Virus record (IMG/VR): IMGVR_UViG_3300005613_000006
Span: 1-64,000 of that record
From: a virus
Length of the DNA: 64,000 bases
Direction: 5' to 3' (one strand)
In this document: positions 6,075 to 18,328 of the stretch, piece by piece
How the letters are laid out: every line of letters starts with the position of its first letter
Position numbering within the stretch: position 1 is the stretch's first letter
Notes under the pieces: model-generated
Told to the model about the DNA's origin: nothing
What the model saw: only the letters and a program-made list of their open reading frames with translations
Database searches by the model: none
Program-made: the position numbers and the translations under genes

Positions 6075-6158
6075 CGTAAGTCCTTTGGTAGTAAGGGTTT
6101 AGGGCGTGCGGGGCGAGCCCCGGCTGCCGTAAGTCCTTTGCTGTTCACTACTTACGTC
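6075..6158. repeat. 78-bp intergenic element, copy 1
   Basis: Module TAAGTCCTT-7-AAGGGTTTA, a 28-bp spacer with GGGGC-GA-GCCCC, then module TAAGTCCTT-7-CACTACTTA. The first module pairs over 9 bp with two G-T wobbles when read on the + strand. Confidence 0.85.
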
Positions 6159-6178
6159 GATTTCACTGCGTAGTGAAC
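6143..6178. repeat. Inverted repeat next to element 1
   Basis: GTTCACTAC and GTAGTGAAC form a perfect 9-bp dyad around 18 bases. It overlaps the second module of element 1. Confidence 0.6.
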
Positions 6179-6199
6179 ACGCCGGTTTGAGTGAACACC

Positions 6200-6228
6200 A
6201 ATAAACAAAGCCCCCATTTCTGGGGGCT
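6200..6228 (-). terminator. Rho-independent terminator
   Basis: AGCCCCC/GGGGGCT hairpin with a six-base loop followed on the - strand by TTTGTTTAT. Ends the DUF932 transcription unit. Confidence 0.8.
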
Positions 6229-6232
6229 AAGC

Positions 6233-6310
6233 CTAACCTTCGTTTTGACTCAGAAGGCCGAGTATAATCCCGACACACACAACCAGGAGGACGAGGATGT
6301 AACCCGCCAT
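6233..6310 (-). CDS. Single-pass membrane peptide, 25 aa
   Basis: M-A-G-Y-I then a run of Leu, Val and Ile to residue 20, ending S-Q-N-E-G. It follows the DUF932 gene by five bases and lies just before the terminator. The ribosome site is weak, so translation may depend on coupling. Confidence 0.5.
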   Translation of the reverse strand: MAGYILVLLVVCVGIILGLLSQNEG

Positions 6311-6315
6311 ACGGG

Positions 6316-7062
6316 CTATACCGCTTGCGTCACGCACACGGCGTCGAACAGGCCGTGCAGCTTTTGCGTGCGGGTGGGTAACTCTGCCAGCGAACTACCC
6401 TTGAGGGTTTCGGTGAAGGCGTTGAACAGCCGCCAACCGTTCTTTCCCTTGAACTCGGGATGATTGGGAGCGTGCCACTGTTCCAGCACCTTGGGAACCC
6501 GCGTTGCGTTAATGGCCCTGCCGCGAAGGGCACGGCACACAATGTCGTGAGCCTGGGCATCCACCAGTTCGGTTTCCTTGTAGGCGTTGATGCGGGCATC
6601 CTGGGCGGTTCGCATATCGACCAAGCGACCGATGGCCTTTTGTACCAAGCCGGGAAGGTCGCGGTTGATGAAACGGGTATGACGACGACCCACAACTACC
6701 TCGGACGAAAACGCGAGGTTGTCGCAAACGAACACGCCAGAACCCAAGCAGATGCCAGCCGGGATGCTTTTGTCGTGCGAGTTACGCAAGCCGAAAACCA
6801 GGGAGTAGTCTTCGTGTTGGGCCTCACCGTTCTCGACCTGAAAGAGGCCGAAGTAACGCAAACCGTCACGATAGATGGCATGCGATTCGTTCACAACACG
6901 CAAGCCGTAGCCCGGCAGTAATTCTCGCAACAGGTCAATCAGCTTGGTGTGGGGGATGGGGCACCAACTCTGGGTGGGTTCCGGTGTTTCGATTCCAATG
7001 AGGGCACTTGCCTCAATCAGACGCGAACGCCCGGTGTCCAAACACAAATTCAAACTTCTCAT
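6316..7062 (-). CDS. DUF932-family protein, 248 aa
   Basis: The middle of the protein has Y-F-G-L-F-Q-V-E-N-G, D-Y-S-L-V-F-G-L-R-N-S-H-D-K-S and G-S-G-V-F-V-C-D-N-L-A-F-S, the signature region of the DUF932 family found on many phages and plasmids. The function is not established. GAGGAG lies before the ATG. Transcribed from its own promoter at 7111-7138, with a terminator behind. Confidence 0.8.
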   Translation of the reverse strand: MRSLNLCLDTGRSRLIEASALIGIETPEPTQSWCPIPHTKLIDLLRELLPGYGLRVVNESHAIYRDGLRYFGLFQVENGEAQHEDYSLVFGLRNSHDKSIPAGICLGSGVFVCDNLAFSSEVVVGRRHTRFINRDLPGLVQKAIGRLVDMRTAQDARINAYKETELVDAQAHDIVCRALRGRAINATRVPKVLEQWHAPNHPEFKGKNGWRLFNAFTETLKGSSLAELPTRTQKLHGLFDAVCVTQAV

Positions 7063-7110
7063 GTCTCAAACTCCTCAAAAAAAACGAAAGGTTAGTTGGT
7101 TGATGCTTTC

Positions 7111-7138
7111 ATTATAGCATATCAGTCGAGATTGTCAA
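7111..7138 (-). promoter_or_regulatory. Sigma-70 promoter, leftward
   Basis: TTGACA, 16 bp ending ATATGC, TATAAT. It overlaps the 3' end of the next gene upstream. Confidence 0.85.
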
Positions 7139-7331
7139 GGGCCTTTGCACAAGGTTCGCAAAGATTTGCTTCCTTGACGGTTTCCCTACCCCTCCCGAGA
7201 ACTATCGTCTTTGGGCCGTACTTGCCCTCCACCACCTTGGTGTAGGTCTTATCACGGGTCTGGATAACCCGCTTGTTTTGGGGGGTGCCATTGGGGGCTG
7301 GCTTATTGCAGCCGTCGCAGATAAAACTCAT
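7122..7331 (-). CDS. Zinc-ribbon protein, 69 aa
   Basis: C-D-G-C near the N-terminus and C-E-P-C near the C-terminus, separated by a basic region (R-D-K-T-Y-T-K-V-V); a classic two-knuckle zinc ribbon. GAGG before the ATG. Its stop codon lies within the promoter of the following gene. Confidence 0.75.
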   Translation of the reverse strand: MSFICDGCNKPAPNGTPQNKRVIQTRDKTYTKVVEGKYGPKTIVLGRGRETVKEANLCEPCAKALDNLD

Positions 7332-7369
7332 GGTCGCCTCGTAAGTTAGGATTCAGTTGGTCTACTGTA

Positions 7370-7397
7370 AGTATAACATAAGAATTGAAAATGTCAA
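7370..7397 (-). promoter_or_regulatory. Sigma-70 promoter, leftward
   Basis: TTGACA, 16-bp spacer, TATACT; drives the zinc-ribbon gene. Confidence 0.8.
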
Positions 7398-7473
7398 GGA
7401 ACTCCGCACCAGCTATTTTGTATCCGGCTGGACCCTCTTGTTACGTCGGCCACTACTAGCGGCGAACGCCTAG

Positions 7474-7545
7474 CATACCCCCAAGGAATCGAACCCTGCC
7501 ACAGTGGGTTGGAACCACCGTCGCCACCTTGGAACATTGGGGTAT
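7474..7545 (-). tRNA. tRNA-Trp (anticodon CCA)
   Basis: Acceptor ATACCCC/GGGGTAT perfect; anticodon stem GGTGG/CCACT with loop TTCCAAC, T33 present; T arm CAGGG-TTCGATT-CCTTG; discriminator G. Transcribed with the gene at 7567-7869. Confidence 0.85.
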
Positions 7546-7566
7546 GTCGGCCCTTGCGGGCCACGC

Positions 7567-7869
7567 TCAGTCGGCCTTGTCGGCGGCGGCTTGAGCCTTC
7601 AACGACGCTGCAATGGCGGCGTAGTCGTTCTTCTGTCGGCCACCCTTGGGTGCGACCTTCGGCTTGAGCAACTGCATGTCGGTGTTTTCCAGGCCCTTGC
7701 GGTACTGTCGCTCACGGCTGGCAAAGTTGCCTTCCTTGAGCCCCATACCTTCGCGAATCTCGCGTCGGGTCTTTCCGGCACGGCAGCCTGCATTGAACTG
7801 CAAGCAGAAGTCGCCAGCACTGATGGTTTCGGTCTTTTCCTTGGTCGCGGTTGCTTTTTCGTCGGCCAT
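7567..7869 (-). CDS. Putative small DNA-binding protein, 100 aa
   Basis: The centre (G-K-T-R-R-E-I-R-E-G-M-G-L-K-E-G-N-F) looks like a helix-turn-helix, flanked by a Lys/Glu-rich N-terminus and an Ala/Lys-rich tail. AGGAGAG precedes the ATG. The motif is suggestive, not diagnostic. Followed in the same transcript by tRNA-Trp. Confidence 0.6.
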   Translation of the reverse strand: MADEKATATKEKTETISAGDFCLQFNAGCRAGKTRREIREGMGLKEGNFASRERQYRKGLENTDMQLLKPKVAPKGGRQKNDYAAIAASLKAQAAADKAD

Positions 7870-7932
7870 GTGTGGCTCTCCTATAAAAGCGGATAACGGT
7901 GGTACAGCCTACACTGGCTGTTTCTTTCCCTT

Positions 7933-7960
7933 ATTATAGCACACTTTCCTGATTTGTCAA
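7933..7960 (-). promoter_or_regulatory. Sigma-70 promoter, leftward
   Basis: TTGACA, 16 bp ending TGTGC, TATAAT; drives 7869 and tRNA-Trp. Confidence 0.85.
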
Positions 7961-8001
7961 CCATTTTTCTCGCGGCTTTATTAGGATAGTTTTGCTGATA
8001 C

Positions 8002-8046
8002 AAAAAAGAGGTAGGCAACGTGACTAGTCGCGCCGTGTTGCCTACC
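8002..8046 (-). terminator. Rho-independent terminator
   Basis: GGTAGGCAAC pairs with GTTGCCTACC, followed on the - strand by TCTTTTTTG. Confidence 0.9.
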
Positions 8047-8116
8047 CCTCACTTTCGCGGCCCAGAGGCTTGCTTTCCTTGTCGGGAGTGGCGGCTGCTT
8101 GGACTGGCTAAGTGGC

Positions 8117-8260
8117 TCAGAGCAAGATGATTTGCGACACGATAACCTCACCCTCAACAGGGAAGCCATCGACCAACACGACATACCCCGTAATGAGGGT
8201 TTGGATGTTGGTGTAGGAGTCGTCAATCAACAGTTGGAAGTCGATAATCTCAATCATCAT
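8117..8260 (-). CDS. Hypothetical protein, 47 aa
   Basis: Short, Ile/Val/Asp-rich (M-M-I-E-I-I-D-F-Q-L-L-I-D-D), strand-like. Ribosome site weak. Only gene between the promoter at 8300 and the terminator at 8002, which is the main support. Confidence 0.5.
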   Translation of the reverse strand: MMIEIIDFQLLIDDSYTNIQTLITGYVVLVDGFPVEGEVIVSQIILL

Positions 8261-8299
8261 TCTGTTTTCGGTTTGTGGTTTGTTCCCTTCAATACTCCA

Positions 8300-8327
8300 A
8301 TTATAGCATACCAATCGAATAAGTCAA
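8300..8327 (-). promoter_or_regulatory. Sigma-70 promoter, leftward
   Basis: TTGACT, 16 bp ending TATGC, TATAAT. Confidence 0.8.
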
Positions 8328-8346
8328 TCGTTTTCTAAGGAATAGT

Positions 8347-8398
8347 CGTAAGTGCTGTTGTGCCAACAACTTACGTCACGCGGGGCTGCAAGGGTTTA
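8347..8398. repeat. 78-bp intergenic element, copy 2 (deleted)
   Basis: First module TAAGTGCTG-7-AACAACTTA and the first half of the spacer are intact; a deletion joins the spacer to the last half-module AAGGGTTTA. That half-module supplies the TAA stop of the glycosylase gene. Confidence 0.8.
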
Positions 8399-8965
8399 GT
8401 GCGAGCTATATTTCTTCCACAAGTACAGGTCGAAATCCGCCACACTCACACCATCCGGCAGGAATCGCATGAATTCATCAGCGAGTTCCTTATACCTCTT
8501 GGCACTAGTGGGGGTGGACATCGGTGCATCAACCCCACAATCCCGTAGGAAATGTAGAATGTGAGTATCCAGAATAGGGTAGTCATACCCCTCCCTGCTG
8601 TGGGTCAGAAAGAAATGGGCCGTTTTGTGGCTAACTCCCTTTATCCCCATCAAATCCTCGAACGAACACACAAGAAGGTCGAGGTTGGCAAGGGCAGCAC
8701 TGCGGAGAAAATCCGCCTTCTGATTGTGCGGCGTAATACCACAGCTATGAAGCAACGCGGCGAACTGTCCTATTCCCCTATGTCGGCAATACTTGTTGAT
8801 TGCAGCGAGGTAGTGACGTGGCACCCGTAGCTTCTTGAGTAGCTTGTCAACAGCGGGGGCGATTCTCTTGGCTTGCTTGTTGGCTACACAGATTGAGAAA
8901 ATCAGAAACTCTTCCAACTCCCTCCCATCTCTTTTGTAGTTGGTAATCTTGTTGGGGTCTATCAT
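8396..8965 (-). CDS. HhH-GPD DNA glycosylase/lyase, 189 aa
   Basis: Helix-hairpin-helix L-M-G-I-K-G-V-S-H-K-T-A-H-F-F-L at residues 105-120, followed by P-I-L-D-T-H-I-L-H-F-L-R with the presumed catalytic Asp at 133. This is the endonuclease III / 8-oxoguanine glycosylase superfamily, which removes damaged or modified bases. A lysine within the HhH (114) is where bifunctional members form the Schiff base. There is no iron-sulfur cysteine cluster at the C-terminus. The start at 8965 overlaps the upstream stop as ATGA. The target base is unknown; repair or processing of modified DNA are both possible. Confidence 0.75.
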   Translation of the reverse strand: MIDPNKITNYKRDGRELEEFLIFSICVANKQAKRIAPAVDKLLKKLRVPRHYLAAINKYCRHRGIGQFAALLHSCGITPHNQKADFLRSAALANLDLLVCSFEDLMGIKGVSHKTAHFFLTHSREGYDYPILDTHILHFLRDCGVDAPMSTPTSAKRYKELADEFMRFLPDGVSVADFDLYLWKKYSSH

Positions 8966-9195
8966 GCTAATATCTCCACTACTTTCATTTCTTCTGCTAA
9001 TATCCAAGTTCCACCCTGAGATTGTGGGCGATTGAACTTCCGAACCCGTCGCAGTTGTACACGCGCCCACACTCTGCCCTTCTCAGACAGGTGGGGTGCT
9101 ACCTTCTCAATGGTGGCGTGCCAACCGGGGCGATGTGCGTACCCCTTGGTGGGGTGGTCTTCTGCGGGATACCATACCCCAACTCGATACGCAAT
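8962..9195 (-). CDS. Conserved phage hypothetical protein, about 77 aa
   Basis: The convincing part reads A-Y-R-V-G-V-W-Y-P-A-E-D, G-Y-A-H-R-P-G-W-H-A-T, G-R-V-W-A-R-V-Q-L and ends W-I-L-A-E-E-M-K-V-V-E-I-L-A. No ATG lies near the start of this part. I used an ATT at 9195 just after the upstream stop, but a start within the upstream gene is possible. Stop overlaps the glycosylase start. The G-W-H core is shared by small phage proteins of unknown function. Confidence 0.5.
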   Translation of the reverse strand: MAYRVGVWYPAEDHPTKGYAHRPGWHATIEKVAPHLSEKGRVWARVQLRRVRKFNRPQSQGGTWILAEEMKVVEILA

Positions 9196-9202
9196 TGCCC
9201 GC

Positions 9203-9988
9203 TTACGCCCTCGCCCCCCTCTCCTTACGGGAGTAGCCCCCCTCAGACTTCTTAATCTTCTGCCACGCGGAGGCAGCGTCCGACCCCTTCGGTTGGGTGC
9301 CATGCAGCAGAAGGGCGAAGTTCCCCCCAACAGTGGCAGCGTGACTATCATCGTGGTCAATCGGCATAGCCGTTTCATCACGCGAAAAAACTACTTTTGC
9401 GGTACGGATTTCCAGCTTCTTAATCAGGTGGTCATACTTCCCCCCAGCCGAACCAGTCAGCAGGAAGTTGTGAAGCAACACCCCCTTATAGAGGAATGAG
9501 AGGTCATACCCATCGAGGTACAGCCGATGGACAAAGGGTAGACTCTTGGTGTATGCGTAGAACAACACATCGGGACGTTGCTCAGCGGCACGCACAGCCC
9601 CCAATAGGTAGGTATACTTGAAGAAGTCCCCCGCAACGTGGTAGCGAAGCACCTTACACTTGGGGGGTAGACCGGCGAGGATAAGGTCGCAGACTTGCGA
9701 GGGGCCGCGACATGCCTTGATGCACTCCCAGTTCCGCAGACGGTTCTTATACACCGCCGGAAAGAGTACCTCTTGAGAGGCAGAGAAACACCTGAATTGG
9801 GTATATCGTCCGTCCTTGACAGACCGCTTGCCAGCGGCATCGAGTACCACCTTAGAGTGACAGTCCTTCGCACCGGGGCACGTATACCCCGAAAGGAGGT
9901 CGAGACTATAAATCTTCTCCCCCTTAACCAGACCTAGCACCTTACCCAAAGTCTCTATCTTCGCATTAGCTTCCGAGAAGTACAGCAT
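9203..9988 (-). CDS. GP88-like conserved phage protein, 261 aa
   Basis: Contains S-L-D-L-L-S-G-Y-T-C-P-G-A-K-D-C near residue 30, R-Y-H-V-A-G-D-F-F in the middle, F-Y-A-Y-T-K-S-L-P and, late, I-D-H-D-D-S-H-A-A-T with G-N-F-A-L-L-L-H-G. This series of Cys, His, Asp motifs resembles the phage gene product 88 group, whose function is not known. I took the ATG at 9988 because GGAGGGTGGT stands before it. It heads an operon with the glycosylase gene. Confidence 0.65.
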   Translation of the reverse strand: MLYFSEANAKIETLGKVLGLVKGEKIYSLDLLSGYTCPGAKDCHSKVVLDAAGKRSVKDGRYTQFRCFSASQEVLFPAVYKNRLRNWECIKACRGPSQVCDLILAGLPPKCKVLRYHVAGDFFKYTYLLGAVRAAEQRPDVLFYAYTKSLPFVHRLYLDGYDLSFLYKGVLLHNFLLTGSAGGKYDHLIKKLEIRTAKVVFSRDETAMPIDHDDSHAATVGGNFALLLHGTQPKGSDAASAWQKIKKSEGGYSRKERGARA

Positions 9989-10028
9989 ACCACCCTCCGG
10001 TGTCATAGTGTAGTTGGTTGATGCCCTT

Positions 10029-10056
10029 ATTATACCACCCCAGCGGGGAAAGTCAA
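10029..10056 (-). promoter_or_regulatory. Sigma-70 promoter, leftward
   Basis: TTGACT, 16 bp, TATAAT; drives 9988 to 8396. Confidence 0.8.
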
Positions 10057-10076
10057 GCCCTGTCAAGTCATTTTGT

Positions 10077-10160
10077 CCTAAGTCGTTGCTGTGTAACGGG
10101 TTACGTCGCGCGGGGCTAGCCCCGCTCGCCCTAAGTGCTTACGCCACAACGAGTTACGTC
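10077..10160. repeat. 78-bp intergenic element, copy 3
   Basis: TAAGTCGTT-7-AACGGGTTA, a 28-bp spacer with GGGGC-TA-GCCCC, TAAGTGCTT-7-AACGAGTTA. The last TTA is the stop codon of the gene at 10154-10375. Confidence 0.9.
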
Positions 10161-10375
10161 AAGTTCTGGATGGTCGAGGGTCCAAGTCTCCACAGAAACT
10201 CTTGCAGCCCAATCTCATCATCCATGCTACGGGGCGGCACTGGCAGTTCTCCCATCATGCAGCGATGTCGCCACCCATCAGGGTCGATAATTCTGACGCC
10301 AACAAGTTCCGCCCACTTGTGAGCAGTGTACTCATTATCAGCGTGGTCATACAGCCAATCCAGTAAGTTGTTCAC
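10154..10375 (-). CDS. Hypothetical protein, 73 aa
   Basis: Starts with GTG (M-N-N-L-L-D-W-L-Y-D-H-A-D-N) preceded by AAAGGT and overlapping the upstream stop as GTGA. Acidic helices and W-R-H-R-C-M-M-G-E; no family recognised. Its stop codon is part of element copy 3. Confidence 0.65.
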   Translation of the reverse strand: MNNLLDWLYDHADNEYTAHKWAELVGVRIIDPDGWRHRCMMGELPVPPRSMDDEIGLQEFLWRLGPSTIQNLT

Positions 10376-10569: not shown

Positions 10570-10575
10570 TCATAG

Positions 10576-10646
10576 AGGGAAAGGTGGGAATCGAACTCAC
10601 AACCTATTGGTTAACGGCCAATCGCTTGCCTTTCAGCTTCACTCCC
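10576..10646 (-). tRNA. tRNA-Asn (anticodon GTT)
   Basis: Acceptor GGGAGTG/CTTTCCC with one mismatch, anticodon stem ATTGG/CCAAT, loop CCGTTAA, T arm GTGAG-TTCGATT-CCCAC. Position 33 is C instead of the near-invariant T. The 5' end overlaps the last bases of the HNH gene. Confidence 0.75.
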
Positions 10647-10998: not shown

Positions 10999-11000
10999 AC

Positions 11001-11023: not shown

Positions 11024-11121
11024 ACAACATTGTGGAAAGTAGCCCCTTTGGTCCTATCAACCTTCATTACTTCAATTAAGTGCTGTTGGAAAAAGGATTG
11101 TAGGAGCAAGGTGCTACTAAG

Positions 11122-11190
11122 TGGCAGGGGAGGGAGTCGCACCCCCAAGGCTCGGCTTATGGGGCCGTGCTGGAAACTGTTCCCCCTGCG
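11122..11190 (-). tRNA. tRNA-Met (anticodon CAT)
   Basis: Acceptor with six pairs plus a C1-C72 mismatch, anticodon stem CGGC/GCCG, loop CCCATAA, T arm GGGGG-TGCGACT-CCCTC. Two oddities: C at position 33 and TGC where the T loop has TTC. An unpaired first acceptor position is a feature of bacterial initiator tRNA, but the three-GC anticodon stem of initiators is absent, so the type (initiator, elongator or tRNA-Ile2-like) is open. Confidence 0.7.
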
Positions 11191-11194
11191 TTGT

Positions 11195-11553: not shown

Positions 11554-11559
11554 ATCCCT

Positions 11560-11911: not shown

Positions 11912-11939
11912 ATTATAGCACACCGCCCCGAATTGTCAA
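11912..11939 (-). promoter_or_regulatory. Sigma-70 promoter, leftward
   Basis: TTGACA, 16 bp ending TGTGC, TATAAT. Confidence 0.85.
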
Positions 11940-11958: not shown

Positions 11959-12042
11959 CCTAAGTGCTTACGCTGCAACACTTTATGCCCGGCGGGGCCA
12001 GCCCCGCTCGTCGTAAGTCCTTATGTGGCAACCACTTATATC
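11959..12042. repeat. 78-bp intergenic element, copy 4
   Basis: TAAGTGCTT-7-AACACTTTA, 28-bp spacer with GGGGC-CA-GCCCC, TAAGTCCTT-7-AACCACTTA. The final TTA is the stop of the next gene. Confidence 0.9.
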
Positions 12043-12284
12043 ACTTTCGGGTCATCTTCATAATCCTCGGGGTATTCGTTGGCCATGTGTAGCAGTTGAA
12101 TGATGGTACCCAGCCCAATCTCTTGTTCTTCTGGGTGGTCTGCGTGTAGTGCCTTGACGATGAAAATATCAGCGGGTAGAGGTTCCCCCTCGGCAACTTT
12201 CTCCCTTACAAGCACCATGCAGGGCTCATACGGGTTGCCACCATCACGGTATTCGGTATCCTCTCCCCACTGAATTTCATACAT
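12036..12284 (-). CDS. Acidic hypothetical protein, 82 aa
   Basis: Glu/Asp-rich throughout (W-G-E-D-T-E-Y-R-D-G-G; tail Y-P-E-D-Y-E-D-D-P), with a helix near H-A-D-H-P-E-E-Q-E-I-G. GGAG precedes the ATG. Follows a membrane protein gene by five bases. The stop lies in element copy 4. No family recognised; acidic phage proteins are sometimes DNA mimics, but nothing here proves that. Confidence 0.65.
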   Translation of the reverse strand: MYEIQWGEDTEYRDGGNPYEPCMVLVREKVAEGEPLPADIFIVKALHADHPEEQEIGLGTIIQLLHMANEYPEDYEDDPKVI

Positions 12285-12742: not shown

Positions 12743-13408
12743 CTACGCGGGTTGCAATTCTTTCTTTACAGCTTTTTTGTAGCACGTTCGCACATTCCCG
12801 TACTCATCTTCTAGACTTGTCCACCCGTCGAAGACGTTACCTATAACGGGGGAGCCGTCACACCCACATTGAACTATGTCGCCGTTGGGTCTGATGATAT
12901 GGTCTTCACACATGCAGAACTTGGCCGACTCGACAATATCCTCGTAATCCTCGCCCTCGTAGTAGGTTTCCAATGCTCGGCCAGTGGCACTGGGTTCTTG
13001 CGTGTCGGTGGTGTTGCGAATCCCAACGGGTTGCCCCCACTGAGAGTTGCCAAGTGCCTCAAACGCACTGACTACTTCGGGGTCAATCTCTTCGTGGTAT
13101 TCATCTTGCGACAACTGAGCCGAAATGGCTTTTTTGTTCGCCAGCTTGGCAAGCATAAGAGCCCGCTTTTTGTTTTTGCCGTTGGTGATAACCAAAGGCT
13201 CGTCAACCGTTGCGACTACCTCAAGCAAGATACGCTCGAAATCGGGATGCACGGTGGGTTCACCACCCCCAATGGCGGCGTAATCGTCTAGACAATCAAG
13301 AGCGGCCAGGAACGTTTTGCGACTCATATCCTCGCCCTTGCCGGGCTCACAGGAAAAGCAGCAGTGGTCACAACGCATATTGCAACGGGTGGTGATTTGG
13401 AGGTACAT
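12743..13408 (-). CDS. Radical SAM enzyme, 221 aa
   Basis: C-N-M-R-C-D-H-C at residues 9-16 is the CxxxCxxC site that holds the [4Fe-4S] cluster used to split S-adenosylmethionine; A-I-G-G-G-E-P-T-V-H-P (45-55) is the GGEP motif. Near the C-terminus C-M-C-E-D-H and Q-C-G-C-D-G form a second cysteine group, as in SPASM-type auxiliary clusters. The protein is short for a full barrel, as in many phage versions. The substrate is unknown; peptide modification and nucleoside modification are both possible. No precursor peptide or partner gene stands out. GAGAGAGAAACC precedes the ATG at 13408. Confidence 0.85.
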   Translation of the reverse strand: MYLQITTRCNMRCDHCCFSCEPGKGEDMSRKTFLAALDCLDDYAAIGGGEPTVHPDFERILLEVVATVDEPLVITNGKNKKRALMLAKLANKKAISAQLSQDEYHEEIDPEVVSAFEALGNSQWGQPVGIRNTTDTQEPSATGRALETYYEGEDYEDIVESAKFCMCEDHIIRPNGDIVQCGCDGSPVIGNVFDGWTSLEDEYGNVRTCYKKAVKKELQPA

Positions 13409-13445
13409 GGTTTCTCTCTCGCTGTGTTGTTCTCTCAATAACTAG

Positions 13446-13475: not shown

Positions 13476-13502
13476 GGAAAAATCAGAAAAATCTCGAAAA
13501 GA

Positions 13503-13585
13503 CGTAACCCCTTACCAGCAAAGCAGTTAGGGCGAGCGGGGCTGGCCCCCGGCGTTGTAACCCTATATGCTGTAAGGGTTTAGGG
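13503..13585. repeat. 78-bp intergenic element, copy 5
   Basis: TAACCCCTT-7-AAGCAGTTA, 28-bp spacer with GGGGC-TG-GCCCC, TAACCCTAT-7-AAGGGTTTA. It lies between two genes that diverge from it, so it does not depend on a gene end. Confidence 0.85.
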
Positions 13586-13620
13586 AAATTTTTGGATTAT
13601 GTCGTCACCGTCAAGATACT

Positions 13621-13640
13621 TTTGGTGTATAATATAGTAG
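13621..13640 (+). promoter_or_regulatory. Rightward-family promoter of HNH gene
   Basis: TTTGGTG-TATAAT-ATAGTAGG, identical over 20 bases to the one at 4131. Confidence 0.75.
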
Positions 13641-13670
13641 GGAAAAATTGGCTCCAAAATGAGGTTTATT

Positions 13671-14156
13671 ATGCCACTTACAGCAGTTCCAAGTAAAGAC
13701 AAAATCTCAACACATTTTTATTGTGGGTATTGTGCTGAGTATCTACCCCGTTCCGAATTTTCACCCAACTGTAATAAACAGAGTTGCCGAAAACACAATT
13801 CTTTATATGACAGAATACGGGCCGACAATCTAAAGAAACGAGTGATTGAATATATGGGAGGCAAATGTTGCAGGTGTGGTTATCAGCAATGTATAGCCGC
13901 TCTTGAACTTCATCACCCCAATCCTGTAATTAAAGAAATGGGTTGGGATAAACTCAGAAAGAGAACTTTTGAGTTCATTATCCAACACATTGAAGAACAG
14001 GGTTTGGTTTTGATATGTGCTAATTGTCATCGAGAGGAACACTACGAAGAAGCTACTCTTCCTCAATGGGTGCCCCGAAAATCTGCTCTTGACACTTTGC
14101 ACAAAGGCCAGAAATCCGATACTCCTTTTCATGGAGGGGAGTGCGGAACTCTGTAG
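13671..14156 (+). CDS. HNH homing endonuclease, 161 aa
   Basis: Zinc knuckles F-Y-C-G-Y-C and C-C-R-C-G-Y, HNH core A-L-E-L-H-H-P-N-P and L-V-L-I-C-A-N-C-H-R-E-E-H. ATG at 13671 follows GAGG. The last 35 residues extend beyond the usual end of the family and are encoded antisense to the 3' part of the gene at 14053-14283. The HNH gene apparently landed beside that gene and borrowed its complement as coding sequence. Confidence 0.85.
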   Translation: MPLTAVPSKDKISTHFYCGYCAEYLPRSEFSPNCNKQSCRKHNSLYDRIRADNLKKRVIEYMGGKCCRCGYQQCIAALELHHPNPVIKEMGWDKLRKRTFEFIIQHIEEQGLVLICANCHREEHYEEATLPQWVPRKSALDTLHKGQKSDTPFHGGECGTL

Positions 14157-14283
14157 CTGGACCACCGCAGCCGATGGGCGGGGGCACGCACATGTTGGCC
14201 CTAATCTGGGCCTCGCGGTCACCCCCGGTCAGGGCATTGATGAGGCCGTTGATTGCCGGTGCTTTCTTCGTGGGTTCTGCCAT
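14053..14283 (-). CDS. Conserved phage zinc-binding protein, 76 aa
   Basis: Contains R-A-N-M-C-V-P-P-P-I-G-C-G-G-P and, late, Y-R-I-S-G-L-C-A-K-C-Q: four cysteines in two pairs, a pattern seen in small proteins of many phages. GGAGG precedes the ATG. Its start overlaps the upstream stop as TAATG. The 3' 104 bases are shared in antisense with the HNH gene. Confidence 0.75.
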   Translation of the reverse strand: MAEPTKKAPAINGLINALTGGDREAQIRANMCVPPPIGCGGPATEFRTPLHEKEYRISGLCAKCQEQIFGAPIEEE

Positions 14284-14603
14284 TACCAATCCTCCCCATA
14301 ATCGTCAAACTGTCCGTGGTCCCAATCGTCACCACCCATGTAGTCTTGCCACTCGTCATATTCGGACGGCTGACCGTCATCCTCATAAAGGTCGTCGTAC
14401 TCGCCTTCGTCGTACTCGTCGTTCTGCCAGTCGTCGCCCTCGGGGTCGTCGTCACCGAAAACATCCGTAAAGGAAACGGGTTCCTCGGGGTGCTTCTCTT
14501 CCTCGGGGCCGCAGAATAGGCAATCCTCAATAATCGCACCGTTTTCGTCGGCGGAAAAGACTTGACCGCTGCCATCGCAGTTGGGGCACTGATTGTCGGA
14601 CAT
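14283..14603 (-). CDS. Very acidic zinc-knuckle protein, 106 aa
   Basis: N-terminal C-P-N-C-D-G-S-G-Q and C-L-F-C form a DnaJ-type zinc knuckle pair; the remaining two thirds are mostly Asp, Glu, Tyr and Trp. AGGAG precedes the ATG. Probably binds a partner protein or mimics DNA charge; this is inference. Confidence 0.7.
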   Translation of the reverse strand: MSDNQCPNCDGSGQVFSADENGAIIEDCLFCGPEEEKHPEEPVSFTDVFGDDDPEGDDWQNDEYDEGEYDDLYEDDGQPSEYDEWQDYMGGDDWDHGQFDDYGEDW

Positions 14604-14645
14604 GATAAAACTCCTGTGATTTGGGGCTCTCGTTTCAACACCTGT

Positions 14646-14673
14646 ATTATAGCATGGTGACACGGCACGTCAA
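14646..14673 (-). promoter_or_regulatory. Sigma-70 promoter, leftward
   Basis: TTGACG, 16 bp ending CATGC, TATAAT. Confidence 0.8.
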
Positions 14674-14702
14674 GCACAAAATCCAAAAATTCCCAAAGTT
14701 TC

Positions 14703-14783
14703 CCTAAGTGCTTACTGCGTAAGCCTTTACGTCGCGCGGGGCGAGCCCCCGTCGTCGTAACCCCTTATGCCACAAGGGTTTAG
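14703..14783. repeat. 78-bp intergenic element, copy 6
   Basis: TAAGTGCTT-7-AAGCCTTTA, 28-bp spacer with GGGGC-GA-GCCCC, TAACCCCTT-7-AAGGGTTTA; last TTA is the stop of the next gene. Confidence 0.9.
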
Positions 14784-14995
14784 ATGATACCCGCGAGCAT
14801 CAACGCACTCATCACGGTGCCCTTGTTACACTCTTCACACCACCCGTGGCCCTGGTCAGGCTCAACCTCAGTGGTGTACGTACATCCAGGCGTCATGCAG
14901 ATGCCAGGGCTAACGCTGTCGAACGTCGCGTGTTCAAGCATTTCCATCACTTCCATGCCCTCGATGTCTGCCAACAAATCCAGTTTCTCACACAT
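14780..14995 (-). CDS. Zinc-ribbon phage protein, 71 aa
   Basis: C-M-T-P-G-C-T-Y-T-T-E-V-E-P-D and G-W-C-E-E-C-N-K-G-T-V make one zinc ribbon after an acidic helix. Similar small proteins with V-E-P-D and W-C-E-x-C are common in phages of several hosts; their role is unknown. Starts three bases after the upstream stop; stop lies in element copy 6. Confidence 0.75.
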   Translation of the reverse strand: MCEKLDLLADIEGMEVMEMLEHATFDSVSPGICMTPGCTYTTEVEPDQGHGWCEECNKGTVMSALMLAGII

Positions 14996-14998
14996 AGC

Positions 14999-15139
14999 TC
15001 ATTCTCCCTTGAGTGTTGCCACCACAGTCCAGCACCGTTCCACATAGTACGCTGCTTGCTCTGCGGCTTCTGCTTCGTTCTCACCCTCAACCCAGTACCG
15101 TGTACCGTCTGCAACGTGTTCCAGTATAATGTACCACAT
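14999..15139 (-). CDS. Hypothetical protein, 46 aa
   Basis: M-W-Y-I-I-L-E-H-V-A-D-G-T-R-Y-W-V-E-G, then an Ala/Glu-rich helix. GAGGAAACT precedes the ATG. Beta-hairpin plus helix, no family recognised. Confidence 0.65.
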   Translation of the reverse strand: MWYIILEHVADGTRYWVEGENEAEAAEQAAYYVERCWTVVATLKGE

Positions 15140-15167
15140 AGTTTCCTCGCCGCCCGAGCGGGCTGGT

Positions 15168-15269
15168 TTAGCTATTCCAAGTATCGTTGCACACGTCCAC
15201 AATGGCCGCGATAAACACAACGCCGACAAAAAGCATGAGGCCAATCAATACTATTGGGTTACTTACCAT
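15168..15269 (-). CDS. Single-pass membrane peptide, 33 aa, leaderless
   Basis: M-V-S-N-P then a hydrophobic helix of about 20 residues (I-G-L-M-L-F-V-G-V-V-F-I-A-A-I-V), ending D-V-C-N-D-T-W-N-S. The ATG lies six bases after the -10 box of the promoter at 15276, so the message has little or no leader. Confidence 0.65.
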   Translation of the reverse strand: MVSNPIVLIGLMLFVGVVFIAAIVDVCNDTWNS

Positions 15270-15275
15270 GTTTGT

Positions 15276-15303
15276 ATTATAACACCACGATTCAAAAGGT
15301 CAA
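15276..15303 (-). promoter_or_regulatory. Sigma-70 promoter, leftward, leaderless gene
   Basis: TTGACC, 16 bp ending GGTGT, TATAAT. Confidence 0.8.
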
Positions 15304-15322
15304 GAGAAAAAGTAGGAAAAGC

Positions 15323-15391
15323 CCTAAGTCATTGCTGCGTAAGAGTTTATGTCGAGCGTCACCCTAAGTCCTTTTGTGGTAAGGCTTTAGG
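15323..15391. repeat. 78-bp intergenic element, copy 7 (short spacer)
   Basis: TAAGTCATT-7-AAGAGTTTA and TAAGTCCTT-7-AAGGCTTTA with a spacer of only 15 bases; the GC hairpin is missing. Confidence 0.8.
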
Positions 15392-15522
15392 CCGTGTTCC
15401 TTTTCGAGGCAAGCCATGTGGTACACCTTGACATCGCAATCAGGGGTAGTACCTTTGGGTAGGCCACCTTTGGTGGGCAGACCACAGAGGGGGCATATCT
15501 CGCGAGGGTCACAATCCGGCAT
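15364..15522 (-). CDS. Zinc-ribbon protein, 52 aa
   Basis: C-P-L-C-G-L-P-T-K-G-G-L and H-M-A-C-L-E-K-E-H. The ATG at 15522 follows GAGAGAA; an in-frame ATG at 15540 is possible. The last codons and the stop lie inside element copy 7, so the element is partly coding here. Confidence 0.6.
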   Translation of the reverse strand: MPDCDPREICPLCGLPTKGGLPKGTTPDCDVKVYHMACLEKEHGLKPYHKRT

Positions 15523-15613
15523 TTTTTTTGATTCTCTCATAATCAATCTGCATTTTCCAACAACAAAGGAAACCAACAACCCACCCTAATAGAAACGCAA
15601 ATCCAGCTAACAT
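15509..15613 (-). CDS. Single-pass membrane peptide, 34 aa
   Basis: M-L-A-G-F-A-F-L-L-G-W-V-V-G-F-L-C-C-W then a basic tail with K-K-N. AAAGGA precedes the ATG. Overlaps the start of the following zinc-ribbon gene. Confidence 0.6.
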   Translation of the reverse strand: MLAGFAFLLGWVVGFLCCWKMQIDYERIKKNAGL

Positions 15614-15630
15614 GACTAGTCCTTTCTACT

Positions 15631-15676
15631 GTATAAAAATCCCCCCCGACTACTGTATATCAGTACCATCGGGGGG
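15631..15676 (-). terminator. Rho-independent terminator
   Basis: CCCCCCGA and TCGGGGGG form the stem, followed on the - strand by ATTTTTATAC. Ends the unit with the tRNA-like sequence. Confidence 0.8.
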
Positions 15677-15694
15677 AACCGAGAGAGTATGGTG

Positions 15695-15787
15695 GGCGTA
15701 CTCGGTTTTTGTCCCTTGCCCGTGTCTAGCGGGTGTCCTGGCCATTAGACGACACTACGCCGGGGAGTCGAACCCCGAATTTCCCGC
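15695..15787 (-). tRNA. tRNA-like sequence with displaced T arm
   Basis: Read in normal order (15761 to 15695) there is an acceptor GGCGTA/TACGCC, a D arm with the tRNA-Glu-like TCGTCTAATGGCCAGGACA and an anticodon arm CCCG-CTAGACA-CGGG, but no T arm with TTCRA. A perfect T arm (CGGGG-TTCGACT-CCCCG) stands upstream of the D arm instead. Read as a permuted unit (15787 to 15729) GCGG/CCGC closes a 59-base structure that holds the T arm, a five-base link and the D arm GTGTC/GACAC. Either a damaged gene or an unusual permuted tRNA-like RNA. Confidence 0.5.
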
Positions 15788-15792
15788 ATTAC

Positions 15793-16218
15793 TCAATGTG
15801 TTTCAATCATTTCGGTGGGGCTTGCACCACCCCAAAAGTCGGCCCACTCATCGTCAGACTTATCTACCACGTTGGCGGCATCGGCTTCCACCCCACCGTG
15901 GGGGTCGGTCAACGCTCGGGGGTCCAGAGCATAGCCACGCTTGGCCCACTCATCTACCCTCTTTTGCCGGGCCAGATTATCCTCCCTACGTTTTGCCTCA
16001 TCCTTCTTACGGGTGGCGTTGGACAACCCGGCGAGGGTCTTTTCGGTCCAAGGCCGAATATCGTAAGCGGTGGCCCGACTATTGGGGGTGAACGGCTCCC
16101 CGGTCTCGGGGTCTATCACCTTATCCAATTCGATGGTAAACAGGGCAAATTTGGCAACTTCGGGGCTCAAGTCCTCGGGGCAACCAGTAAACGCGGCAAA
16201 CTCGGAATTGCTAAACAT
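15793..16218 (-). CDS. Hypothetical protein, 141 aa
   Basis: N-terminal alpha/beta part (F-A-A-F-T-G-C-P-E-D-L-S-P-E-V), then a long charged helix rich in Lys, Arg and Glu (about 72-95, coiled-coil-like) and an acidic, Trp-containing tail. AGAGAG before the ATG. No family recognised. The tRNA-like sequence follows six bases after its stop. Confidence 0.65.
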   Translation of the reverse strand: MFSNSEFAAFTGCPEDLSPEVAKFALFTIELDKVIDPETGEPFTPNSRATAYDIRPWTEKTLAGLSNATRKKDEAKRREDNLARQKRVDEWAKRGYALDPRALTDPHGGVEADAANVVDKSDDEWADFWGGASPTEMIETH

Positions 16219-16250
16219 GATTTTCTCTCTTTTCTCTCTCGACTAGTTCT

Positions 16251-16278
16251 ATTCTACCATACTACACGGAATTGTCAA
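16251..16278 (-). promoter_or_regulatory. Sigma-70 promoter, leftward
   Basis: TTGACA, 16 bp, TAGAAT. Confidence 0.75.
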
Positions 16279-16288
16279 GCGGTTTGTT

Positions 16289-16387
16289 CTATTTTTTTTC
16301 CGCTGTTTTGCAGGCAGTGCAGACCTTGTAGACCACACCATTGGGGGCTCGACGCTCCACCTGACGACCACCACACACTTTGCACAT
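16289..16387 (-). CDS. Zinc-ribbon micro-protein, 32 aa
   Basis: M-C-K-V-C-G-G-R-Q-V-E-R-R-A-P, then K-V-C-T-A-C-K-T: two CxxC knuckles 19 residues apart. GGGGGTGTGGT precedes the ATG. Ends overlapping nothing; the next promoter begins just beyond. Confidence 0.7.
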   Translation of the reverse strand: MCKVCGGRQVERRAPNGVVYKVCTACKTAEKK

Positions 16388-16397
16388 ACCACACCCC

Positions 16398-16478
16398 CTA
16401 GAGTTGGGATACGCCGAAACCGGCGAGGATTGCCAAAACTGCCGAAACTACCAAAGCTACCATAAATTCGATGACCAT
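16398..16478 (-). CDS. Single-pass membrane peptide, 26 aa
   Basis: M-V-I-E-F-M-V-A-L-V-V-S-A-V-L-A-I-L-A-G and a short F-G-V-S-Q-L end. Clearly related to the 27-residue peptide at 18064-18147. AAGGAAAAAATC precedes the ATG. Confidence 0.7.
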   Translation of the reverse strand: MVIEFMVALVVSAVLAILAGFGVSQL

Positions 16479-16499
16479 GATTTTTTCCTTTCTACCTAT

Positions 16500-16527
16500 A
16501 TTATATACAGCAGGCCGGAAAAATCAA
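16500..16527 (-). promoter_or_regulatory. Sigma-70 promoter, leftward
   Basis: TTGATT, 16 bp, TATAAT; drives the membrane peptide and zinc-ribbon genes. Confidence 0.75.
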
Positions 16528-16551
16528 TAGTTGAGATTCAGTGTCAAGTTG

Positions 16552-16576
16552 TAAGTCGTTGCCACCACAGTAGTTA
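16552..16576. repeat. Single 25-bp module
   Basis: TAAGTCGTT-7-CAGTAGTTA; same 9-7-9 layout as in the 78-bp elements, without a partner module. Confidence 0.6.
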
Positions 16577-16696
16577 CGACGAAAAATTTTTTCAAAGTCG
16601 AGTTACTGGACACTTTAGTGAGCAAGAATAACTACCTTTTTATGTTGAGAGTTTGTGTTTTTCCTATTTCTTTGTGTGTGTTTTCTGTTTGTCGAG

Positions 16697-16770
16697 TGAC
16701 CCGTATGGGAGTCGAACCCATATTTCGGGGTTGAAGGCCCCGCGAATTAACCATTATTCAGGAACGGGCC
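16697..16770 (-). tRNA. tRNA-Glu (anticodon TTC)
   Basis: Acceptor GGCCCGT/ACGGGTC with one wobble, anticodon stem CGGGG/CCCCG, loop CCTTCAA, T arm ATGGG-TTCGACT-CCCAT. Position 33 is C, not T. Discriminator A. Confidence 0.8.
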
Positions 16771-16846
16771 GAAAGCCAAACCCCCCGAGCTTCACTTTGT
16801 ACTTCACACGGGGGGCCACTCCAATCTCTAAGTGGGTACTTACCAT
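16754..16846 (-). CDS. Possible micro-protein, 30 aa
   Basis: M-V-S-T-H-L-E-I-G-V-A-P-R-V-K-Y-K-V-K; ends inside the 5' part of tRNA-Glu. No good ribosome site. The same DNA forms a CCCCCCG/CGGGGGG hairpin (16781-16815), so coding is doubtful. Confidence 0.3.
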   Translation of the reverse strand: MVSTHLEIGVAPRVKYKVKLGGFGFRPVPE

Positions 16847-16931
16847 CAGGAACTAGCCTGGGCAGCAGGCCCTCTTTCGAGGTATGGAACGTAAGGCTAT
16901 GGTAGTAAATAGAACGAGCTTAACCCTTCAC

Positions 16932-16949
16932 CCCGGTTTGTTAGCCGGG
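16932..16949. other. Hairpin after the tRNA-like gene
   Basis: CCCGG/CCGGG with an eight-base loop, on the 3' side of the sequence at 16974-17054. It may delimit tRNA processing. The interval 16847-16931 shows nothing else. Confidence 0.35.
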
Positions 16950-16973
16950 AGCCTACCGCCTCACGACAGTATG

Positions 16974-17054
16974 GGGACTCGAACCCCACGTTCTATGTAG
17001 TATGTAGGGGTCTACCCTCCTGCAAATTATCCTCATTGTTTGTGGCCGTCTGCC
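16974..17054 (-). tRNA. tRNA-like gene, type uncertain (Ser-like)
   Basis: A perfect T arm TGGGG-TTCGAGT-CCCCA, a D arm CAAA/TTTG with GAGGA in the loop, an anticodon arm GGAGG-GTAGACC-CCTAC (anticodon AGA by position) and an enlarged variable region of about 14 bases. The acceptor pairs only five positions (GGCAG with CTGTC). Large variable arms are typical of Ser and Leu tRNAs. Behind its own promoter. Confidence 0.5.
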
Positions 17055-17086
17055 AGCTACTCACCGGCTGCCACGTCCATTCTCAT

Positions 17087-17114
17087 ATTATACCGTATGA
17101 GGCCGGTTTGTCAA
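17087..17114 (-). promoter_or_regulatory. Sigma-70 promoter for tRNA-like gene
   Basis: TTGACA, 16 bp, TATAAT; the tRNA-like sequence begins about 30 bases downstream. Confidence 0.8.
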
Positions 17115-17178
17115 GGGGAAAAACAAAGTGAATCGCCGCAGCGTTGTCAACTTGTGTTTTTCTTTCCTTTCTACTGTA

Positions 17179-17206
17179 ATTATACACAACAGAAGCCAAA
17201 AAACAA
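17179..17206 (-). promoter_or_regulatory. Weak second promoter
   Basis: TTGTTT, 16 bp ending TTGTG, TATAAT, pointing at the same tRNA-like gene. Bases 17207-17401 hold only a single 25-bp module and no convincing gene. Confidence 0.5.
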
Positions 17207-17241
17207 TACAACCCCCCAGATTACCTATGGCTCCGTCGCCG

Positions 17242-17266
17242 TAACTCCTTTCCCTACAATCACTTA
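17242..17266. repeat. Single 25-bp module
   Basis: TAACTCCTT-7-AATCACTTA, 9-7-9 layout. Confidence 0.6.
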
Positions 17267-17401
17267 CATCAATCAACTATTTTCTACAATCCGAACTGGA
17301 CACCTTGGAAATGTGAATCTGCTCCCACTCTGCGGTGGCCCTTCCTGTGGGGGCGGGTATAGCAGGCTGGATTGGGTAGTACACCAGAGGCTACGCCTCG
17401 T

Positions 17402-17483
17402 CGTAAGTCCTTTGATACCAACACCTTACGTCACGCGGGGCGGGCCGGGCTCGACGTAACCTCTTACGTGGCAAGGGTTTAGG
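17402..17483. repeat. 78-bp intergenic element, copy 8
   Basis: TAAGTCCTT-7-AACACCTTA, 28-bp GC-rich spacer (GGGGCGGGCC), TAACCTCTT-7-AAGGGTTTA. The last TTA is the stop of the next gene. Confidence 0.9.
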
Positions 17484-17661
17484 TGACCGAGCCACCTTCC
17501 TTCTCTACCACCCGACAGAAGAGATACCACTGGCCCATGTCGGTTATCTCTTGGGCTACCTCTTGACGGGTAACCTCATCCATGAGGTAGAGGTAGGCAG
17601 CACGGGCTACCGTGCGGCTGACGTTGTGGGTAGTGGCGAGGTGTGTGATAGTCTCTCTCAT
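17479..17661 (-). CDS. Putative HTH protein, 60 aa
   Basis: M-R-E-T-I-T-H-L-A-T-T-H-N-V-S-R-T-V-A-R has the look of a helix-turn-helix; the end Q-W-Y-L-F-C-R-V-V-E-K-E-G matches the end of the protein at 19069-19488 (E-W-M-Y-F-C-E-V-L-Q-A-E-G), so the two are paralogues. AGGAGTACCACC precedes the ATG. Confidence 0.65.
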   Translation of the reverse strand: MRETITHLATTHNVSRTVARAAYLYLMDEVTRQEVAQEITDMGQWYLFCRVVEKEGGSVT

Positions 17662-17671
17662 GGTGGTACTC

Positions 17672-18052
17672 CTATGTGGTGGTGCCGTATAGCTTGGCCT
17701 TGCGAGCTTCAATCTTGGCTTGCCGCTTGGCTTGCTCAGCCTGAAAAGCATACACTCCAAACTTCCCATTAGTGAGGACAACTTGCCCATCCAAATCGGC
17801 GTAGTTCTGCACACGCTTGTGCTTACCACTCACGGTGTACTTCTCTTGTGGATTGCGGCCATAACCGTATCGACATGCTTCTGCGAAGGGGGTATGCTTA
17901 CGGGTGAAGAACACATACACGCCAGCGGGGCACTCGAATGTGATGCACACGAATCGCTCGGGGTACTTCAGATTGACGTGCCAGTTCTCCCTCTCAAAGG
18001 GGGTGATGCTGACAATGCGAGCGTCGGTGATTGTGATGGCGGGTTTTGACAT
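17672..18052 (-). CDS. Hypothetical protein, 126 aa
   Basis: Beta-rich (I-T-I-T-D-A-R-I-V-S-I-T-P-F; F-V-C-I-T-F-E-C-P-A-G-V-Y-V-F-F-T) with a C-terminal Lys/Arg/Gln-rich helix. AGGAATG before the ATG at 18052. Possibly nucleic-acid binding from its charge; no family recognised. Confidence 0.65.
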   Translation of the reverse strand: MSKPAITITDARIVSITPFERENWHVNLKYPERFVCITFECPAGVYVFFTRKHTPFAEACRYGYGRNPQEKYTVSGKHKRVQNYADLDGQVVLTNGKFGVYAFQAEQAKRQAKIEARKAKLYGTTT

Positions 18053-18063
18053 GGTGTACATTC

Positions 18064-18147
18064 CTATATCTGGTTGATTCCAAAGATGGCGAGGATGGCC
18101 AGGATGGCGGCGACGATGAGGGCGATGAGCAGTTCAAAGAATAACAT
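18064..18147 (-). CDS. Single-pass membrane peptide, 27 aa
   Basis: M-L-F-F-E-L-L-I-A-L-I-V-A-A-I-L-A-I-L-A, then F-G-I-N-Q-I. Matches the peptide at 16398-16478 almost position by position (E-x-x-x-A-L-x-V-x-A-x-L-A-I-L-A-x-F-G). First gene behind the promoter at 18178. Confidence 0.7.
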   Translation of the reverse strand: MLFFELLIALIVAAILAILAIFGINQI

Positions 18148-18177
18148 GGTTTTTCTCTCCCTTGTGTGTATGCCTCT

Positions 18178-18205
18178 ATTATAGCCCCCTTTCCCCATAC
18201 GTCAA
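18178..18205 (-). promoter_or_regulatory. Sigma-70 promoter, leftward
   Basis: TTGACG, 16 bp, TATAAT. Confidence 0.8.
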
Positions 18206-18245
18206 TAGCAAAACCATTTATTTTCTCGGAATTTCCAAAATAGTT

Positions 18246-18328
18246 GTAAGTGCTTACGCTGTAACACTTTACGTCGCGCGGGGCGTCCCCCCCCGGTCGT
18301 AAGTCGTTATCCTGTAACGGTTTACGTC
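18246..18328. repeat. 78-bp intergenic element, copy 9
   Basis: TAAGTGCTT-7-AACACTTTA, 28-bp spacer with a run of C, TAAGTCGTT-7-AACGGTTTA. The second module forms a 12-bp stem on the + strand if two G-T wobbles are allowed. Confidence 0.9.

What the first reader, a model, noticed from the sequence alone, without database searches (positions are those of the whole stretch)
6075..18328. A strictly built 78-bp intergenic element: 25-bp dyad, 28-bp spacer, 25-bp dyad
Elements at 6075, 10077, 11959, 13503, 14703, 17402 and 18246 are complete; 15323 has a short spacer and 8347 is a deletion form. Each module keeps TAA-N4-TT, seven bases, AA-N4-TTA with no change in spacing in all 20 or so copies, while the N4 and N7 bases vary. 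In seven elements the spacer is exactly 28 bases, GC-rich, usually with GGGGC-N2-GCCCC. Module centres are 53 bp apart, about five helical turns. Variable bases often stay paired, with G-T wobbles on the + strand. Such regularity with changing sequence points to a selected DNA or RNA structure: cooperative protein sites, a processing or termination signal, or a recombination site between gene cassettes.
Basis: seen in the sequence. Interest (0 to 1): 0.88.

Follow-up and report, generated by a model that had tools for sequence, protein, structure and literature searches.

The report
Paired-dyad junctions between phage gene cassettes
A large family of uncultured giant phages carries a rigidly spaced 78-base DNA element between the single genes of one genome region, and comparisons between related phages show that genes are lost, gained and swapped by recombination inside this element.

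Summary
The window (a 172.9-kb phage record) holds 19 modules, all within 6-18.4 kb, against about 2 expected. The same 25-28-25 architecture occurs in over 280 loci of uncultured phages, and in 34 of 34 large relatives checked, usually as one cluster. No copy was recognised in cultured phages, plasmids or host chromosomes.

The RNA-structure reading fails. Variable arm bases pair less often than shuffled ones, and identical half-sites are avoided only where they lie inverted. Only the GC core is a covarying palindrome. The dyads therefore behave like double-stranded protein sites.

Context: gene stop, element, promoter, next gene. Gene order is least conserved at element junctions. Where the upstream gene is shared and the downstream gene is not, 31 of 36 mappable breakpoints fall inside the element, 18 of them in the core and adjoining half of the spacer. 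Elements at cassette gain or loss sites are chimeras of the two flanking elements (9 of 16 close triads, 0 reciprocal).

Crossovers often coincide with the longest run the two elements share. The phages carry RecA-family proteins but no recognisable site-specific recombinase. It works like the PeSLs of T4-type phages but is built differently. The dyad-binding protein is unknown.

The parts
6077..6154 (.). complete element: modules 6077-6101 and 6130-6154, 28-bp spacer with GGGGCGAGCCCC core
   Evidence: profile scores 38.9 and 25.1
8349..8373 (.). single module (one-dyad form)
10079..10156 (.). complete element between gp88-like gene 9203-10066(-) and ORF 10154-10375(-), whose stop codon is the element's terminal TTA
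10029..10056 (-). promoter of the next gene: -35 TTGACT (10056-10051), 16 bp, -10 TATAAT (10034-10029), reading away from the element
   Evidence: read from sequence; general trend
11961..12038 (.). complete element; ORF 12036-12284(-) ends in its terminal TTA
11912..11939 (-). promoter TTGACA-16-TATAAT reading away from the element
   Evidence: read from sequence
13505..13582 (.). complete element (right module one mismatch), downstream neighbour is radical-SAM gene 12743-13438(-)
14705..14782 (.). complete element; ORF 14780-14995(-) ends in its terminal TTA
14646..14673 (-). promoter TTGACG-16-TATAAT reading away from the element
   Evidence: read from sequence
15325..15389 (.). short-spacer element, module centres 40 bp apart, GC core missing
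17404..17481 (.). complete element; ORF 17479-17829(-) ends in its terminal TTA
18247..18324 (.). complete element
18178..18205 (-). promoter TTGACG-16-TATAAT reading away from the element
   Evidence: read from sequence

Best explanation
The element is the standard junction between single-gene cassettes in the variable early-type region of a large lineage of uncultured phages. Each cassette is a promoter plus one gene (or tRNA), running from the promoter side of one element to the gene-end side of the next. Shown by comparison: cassettes are deleted, inserted and replaced by crossovers inside the 78-bp element, mostly in the palindromic GC core between the two dyads. Inferred: the crossovers are homologous or micro-homologous, made by the phage's own RecA-family recombination, because they often fall in the longest run the two partner elements share. 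Inferred: the two dyads, 53 bp (five turns) apart, are double-stranded binding sites of an unidentified dimeric protein. That protein keeps the element in place, probably as a boundary or regulator of the one-gene transcription units, and perfect palindromes are selected against.
For: Conserved spacing in relatives. One cluster per phage, in 34 of 34 large relatives; cluster positions were read for the genomes whose hits are listed. No arm covariation, and avoidance of identical half-sites only in inverted pairs: LO-LI 1 vs 14.6, RI-RO 1 vs 10.1, LO-RO 0 vs 9.4, while direct pair LO-RI is 26 vs 13.2. GC core palindrome covaries, z 5.2, with slid controls at most 1.8. Gene stop-element-promoter order: 527 of 615 elements lie between co-directional genes, 3' gap median 24, 5' gap median 96; promoter reading away 386 vs toward 34 on the downstream-gene side. 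Gene order least conserved across element junctions: 25% vs 38% vs 55%. Breakpoints: 31 of 36 in the element, 18 in 19 bp of core and second half of spacer. Chimeric elements at cassette gain or loss sites, for example L389 against L151 and L325 against L430; 9 chimeras against 0 reciprocal in 16 close triads. Crossover in the longest shared run in about half of 22 triads. RecA family in 26 of 35; tyrosine recombinases 1 sub-threshold in 35; serine and Y1 recombinases 0 of 35.
Against: General homology ends are only 2.4-fold enriched inside elements (11.6% vs 4.8%), so much exchange happens elsewhere. Breakpoints mapped from the downstream-gene side are broad, with 14 of 26 in the element. Relatedness makes some events non-independent, and gene calls are my own. 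Being a crossover site may be a by-product of an element kept for another reason. No binding protein was identified. No close relative of this very genome was found, so the chimeras come from other phages of the lineage.
Confidence: 0.6

Rival explanations
1. Regulatory or insulating protein site. A phage or host protein binds the paired dyads cooperatively and blocks read-through or controls the neighbouring promoter (a roadblock, silencer or stoperator-like boundary). Recombination there is only a side effect of repeated sequence.
For: Fixed 53-bp spacing, half-site grammar, position just after the stop and 20-60 bp before a promoter. Elements between convergent genes are commoner than between divergent ones (59 vs 29; among intergenic gaps 23:16 with an element vs 11:27 without). 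Few intrinsic terminators anywhere in these genomes.
Against: Many intergenic gaps in the same cluster have promoters but neither element nor terminator. The element is tied as strongly to the downstream gene's start as to the upstream gene's end. No protein identified.
Confidence: 0.25
2. Dedicated site-specific recombination site. A recombinase binds the four half-sites (9-7-9 geometry as in lambda-type core sites) and exchanges strands at the GC core or the N7 overlaps.
For: 9-7-9 geometry, palindromic core, crossovers concentrated in the core, within-phage similarity of the inner half-sites and core.
Against: No recognisable tyrosine recombinase (1 sub-threshold hit in 35), serine recombinase or Y1 transposase. 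Crossovers shift to other shared runs in several triads instead of one fixed position. N7 differs among elements of one phage.
Confidence: 0.1
3. RNA-level element: bidirectional terminator or RNase processing site.
For: Sits at 3' ends of genes, including after tRNA genes; GC core can form a short hairpin.
Against: Arms pair less than chance and avoid perfect inverted repeats. Dyad hairpins form in only about 10% of minimum-energy folds. No T-run. No Rfam match in the window's first 24 kb beyond tRNA-type hits.
Confidence: 0.05

Closest known systems
PeSLs (promoter early stem-loops) of T4-type phages, Arbiol et al. 2010, Comeau et al. 2014 (as cited in PMC4503421 and PMC3950731)
   Same: Short intergenic composite element next to an early-type promoter, many copies in one plastic region, mediates shuffling of single genes between related phages.
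   Different: Here two spaced 15-7-15 dyads flank a palindromic GC core; the dyads are not conserved as RNA stems; the promoter lies outside the repeated element; phage lineage without detectable nucleotide similarity to cultured phages.
Inverted-repeat/TATA motifs before ORFs of haloarchaeal virus HGTV-1 (PMC3950731)
   Same: Repeated promoter-plus-inverted-repeat units before many ORFs on one side of the genome, proposed to drive shuffling.
   Different: As the review describes it, a single inverted repeat with a TATA-like box; no paired dyads or GC core mentioned; archaeal host.
Stoperators of cluster A mycobacteriophages (PMC9283540)
   Same: More than twenty protein-binding sites per genome, placed in short intergenic spaces.
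   Different: 13-bp asymmetric sites bound by a monomer and oriented with transcription; here symmetric paired dyads; no repressor known.
Integron attC sites and BIME/REP elements (from general knowledge)
   Same: attC: recombination site just after a gene's stop codon. BIME: pair of palindromes with a spacer in intergenic regions.
   Different: attC folds as a hairpin whose halves pair (here the outer halves avoid pairing); no integrase; no RAYT-type Y1 transposase; not found in host chromosomes.

Membership tests
PeSL of T4-type phages | adjacent early-type sigma-70 promoter | tested here: met
   386 promoter-like sites reading away within 150 bp of 588 elements, 34 toward
PeSL of T4-type phages | RNA stem-loop / terminator | tested here: not met
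   dyad arms pair less than shuffled; few folds keep them; terminators rare
PeSL of T4-type phages | mediates modular shuffling | tested here: met
   breakpoints and chimeras, low synteny at junctions
PeSL of T4-type phages | occurs in a T4-type phage | tested here: inconclusive
   terminase ORF matches scattered phages at under 30% identity, partly through its intein; lineage not placed
Tyrosine-recombinase (lambda-type) core site | inverted 9-bp arms around a 7-bp overlap | tested here: met
   9-7-9 geometry
Tyrosine-recombinase (lambda-type) core site | phage-encoded integrase | tested here: not met
   PF00589 above cut-off in 0 of 35 records
Integron attC site | the two outer simple sites pair in a folded single strand | tested here: not met
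   outer-outer pairing below expectation, identical outer halves 0 vs 9.4 expected
Serine recombinase res/inversion site or REP/RAYT | resolvase or Y1 transposase present | tested here: not met
   PF00239 and PF01797 in 0 of 35
Stoperator | asymmetric monomer site oriented with transcription | tested here: not met
   sites are symmetric dyads
Stoperator | repressor bound there stops elongation | not testable with these tools
   needs binding and transcription assays

The most novel reading that the evidence does not exclude
The paired dyads are the binding sites of an undescribed phage protein that both insulates one-gene transcription units and directs cassette exchange to the GC core. That would be an integron-like cassette system of lytic phages, built without any known recombinase family.
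Probability: 0.18. Interest if true: 0.88.

Novelty: new variant of a known kind. Interest (0 to 1): 0.62.

Why it matters
It gives a concrete, widely distributed mechanism for how large phages gain and lose single accessory genes, with breakpoints visible at base level. The same kind of solution (repeated promoter-side boundary elements) was known from T4-type phages and suggested for one archaeal virus; here it occurs in another lineage with a different DNA architecture. The rigid five-turn spacing and the half-site grammar also point to an unknown DNA-binding protein that can be fished out with a 90-bp probe.

Tried and rejected
RNA hairpin or terminator: rejected by covariation, folding and lack of T-runs. 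Lambda-type integrase site, serine resolvase site, REP/RAYT: no enzyme above cut-off in 35 genomes. attC: the halves avoid pairing. Host repeat: the exact 78-bp pattern in one genome for each of 84,980 species gave mostly AT-rich or simple-repeat chance matches plus a few small contigs (L128, L134, L136/L149, L151, L161) that carry real elements and look like phage DNA. Cultured phages and plasmids: no recognisable copy. Terminator replacement: no anticorrelation between element and intrinsic terminator. gp88-like protein search for close relatives: one weak hit. A scan of conserved proteins for the binding factor gave sigma factors and enzymes but no obvious candidate. The promoter-scanner tool and structure prediction were not used.
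Full report
What is there. The window is the first 64 kb of a 172,878-base virus record. Between 6,077 and 18,324 it holds 19 modules TAA-N4-TT-N7-AA-N4-TTA: seven complete pairs with a 28-base spacer, one pair with a 15-base spacer and three single modules. The whole window gives 20 hits with up to one mismatch, against 1.85 expected by dinucleotide shuffling. A 37-base profile finds no further module in the remaining 109 kb.

How widespread it is. In all I worked with 1,429 elements in 286 loci. In 84,980 host species the same pattern gave 56 stretches. Nearly all are AT-rich or simple-repeat chance matches; a handful of small contigs (L128, L134, L136/L149, L151, L161) carry genuine elements and look like phage DNA. 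Megablast with the first 20 kb found no cultured phage, and a consensus element found nothing convincing in phages or plasmids. All 34 large related records carry 4-37 exact modules; where positions were listed they lie in one cluster of about 15-20 kb, with a few AT-rich stray matches elsewhere. Six further phages fetched in pieces share portal, head and terminase-region proteins with this one, so this is one large phage lineage.

Anatomy. From 246 distinct elements the conserved arm extends outward: TYGNCS-TAARYCSTT, seven variable bases, then the mirror image, so each module is about 15-7-15 and the spacer is two 6-base arm extensions around a GC-rich core of about 16 bases. Module centres are 53 bp apart in 448 pairs and 50 bp in a sub-lineage (26 pairs), with few exceptions.

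Not an RNA stem. Variable arm bases form fewer Watson-Crick pairs than shuffled columns (left dyad z -2.3, right dyad z -5.4, 207 representatives below 75% identity). The two half-sites of a module are identical in 1 of 207 elements where 10-15 are expected, the two outer halves in 0 where 9.4 are expected, whereas the directly repeated pair outer-left/inner-right is identical more often than expected (26 vs 13.2, first seen). So perfect inverted repeats are avoided while the half-site grammar is kept. Minimum-energy folds contain the dyad hairpins in about 10% of cases. Only the GC core behaves as a palindrome with covarying sides: z 5.2 in register, at most 1.8 when slid by 1-3 bases. Inner half-sites also show excess letter-level pairing (z 6.1), which I read as lineage-specific half-site flavours rather than structure. 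This is what one expects of double-stranded protein sites around a palindromic core.

Context. Of 615 elements with both neighbours called, 527 lie between co-directional genes, 59 between convergent and 29 between divergent ones. The gap to the preceding stop has median 24 bases and the gap to the next start median 96. Stop codons often lie in the element itself, as in the window at 10154, 12036, 14780 and 17479. On the downstream-gene side, promoter-like TTGA[CT]-N17-20-TAnnnT reads away from the element 386 times and toward it 34 times in 588 elements, with the -35 mostly 20-50 bases off. In the window such promoters (16-bp spacers, read by eye) stand next to the elements at 10079, 11961, 14705 and 18247.

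Exchange happens in the element. Gene order is least conserved across element junctions: the downstream neighbour is conserved in 25% of homologous pairs there, 38% at element-free junctions within 3 kb and 55% further away. Elements are tied about equally to the 3' end of the upstream gene and the 5' side of the downstream gene when the other neighbour differs (65% and 68%; base rates 20% and 24%). For 51 independent pairs in which the upstream gene is shared and the downstream gene is not, 36 breakpoints fall between 30 bases before and 30 bases after the element; 31 of these are inside the 78 bp and 18 are in the 19 bp of core and second half of spacer. Fifteen lie further downstream or could not be resolved. 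From the other side the distribution is broader, with 14 of 26 in the element. Where one phage has A-element-C and another A-element1-gene-element2-C, the single element is a chimera. In L389 against L151 (451-bp cassette) and L325 against L430 (704-bp cassette) the left part matches element 1 and the right part element 2, with the switch inside a shared run of 10 and 13 bp in the core. Among 16 close triads, 9 show this chimera pattern and none the reverse. In about half of 22 well-resolved triads the switch lies in the longest run that the two partner elements share, which points to homology-driven crossing over. A RecA-family protein is present in 26 of 35 records including this one, while Phage_integrase gives one sub-threshold hit and Resolvase and Y1 transposase give none.

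Interpretation. Shown: a conserved paired-dyad DNA element marks the boundaries of single-gene transcription units in one region, and cassette exchange crosses over inside it. Inferred: the crossovers are made by phage homologous recombination, and a dimeric protein binds the dyads, since nothing else explains rigid spacing with variable sequence and no RNA pairing. What that protein does (insulation, promoter control, or steering of recombination) is open. The closest known kind is the PeSL of T4-type phages, described as composite promoter-terminator motifs that mediate modular shuffling (titles and description as cited in PMC4503421 and PMC3950731; the original papers were not held). This element works like a PeSL but fails the stem-loop criterion, so I do not file it as a member.

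Limits. Gene calls, profile and breakpoint mapping are my own scripts. Events may share ancestry. The chimeras come from relatives, not from this genome. Loci were collected by patterns that fix the invariant bases, so the invariance of those bases is partly built in; the profile search relaxes this only to a degree. General homology ends are enriched in elements only 2.4-fold, so exchange is not restricted to them.

Noticed in passing
related loci, e.g. L041:139-4821, L128:902-4953: A sigma-54-type sequence (TTTGGCAC-AGCA-TTTGC) lies 10-20 bp from the element on the downstream-gene side, reading toward the element, in 79 of 588 elements; it is nearly exclusive with the TTGAC/TATAAT promoter (both 27, sigma-54-type only 78, sigma-70-type only 346). 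No sigma-54 gene in the phages. Function unknown.
   Followed up: partly
related loci, e.g. L034, L032, L073: A GCCGATA-like motif sits between -35 and -10 of many of the promoters beside the elements, possibly an operator.
   Followed up: partly
26841-30233: The terminase large subunit ORF (1,130 aa against about 675 aa in relatives) contains an intein with a LAGLIDADG domain.
   Followed up: partly
L263:11324-13420: The RecA-family ORF of this phage (698 aa against about 340 aa in relatives) also carries a LAGLIDADG/intein-like insertion.
   Followed up: partly
13659-14156 and 4163-4561: Small ORFs in a family with many copies in these phages (16 members); the first has an HNH-like pattern by eye and sits beside the element at 13505, on the opposite strand. 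Pfam gives no confident match.
   Followed up: partly
10576-10646 and 11109-11188: Rfam calls a tRNA on the minus strand at 10576-10646 that ARAGORN missed, and a weak tRNA-like structure at 11109-11188.
   Followed up: no
L193, L194, L196, L197, L199, L204: A sub-lineage uses a 25-base spacer (module centres 50 bp apart) with AT-rich GATAATC-like loops.
   Followed up: partly
L270:16000-16692, L264:13460-14125: Conserved phage-encoded sigma-70-type proteins (regions 2 and 4), suggesting phage-directed late transcription.
   Followed up: no
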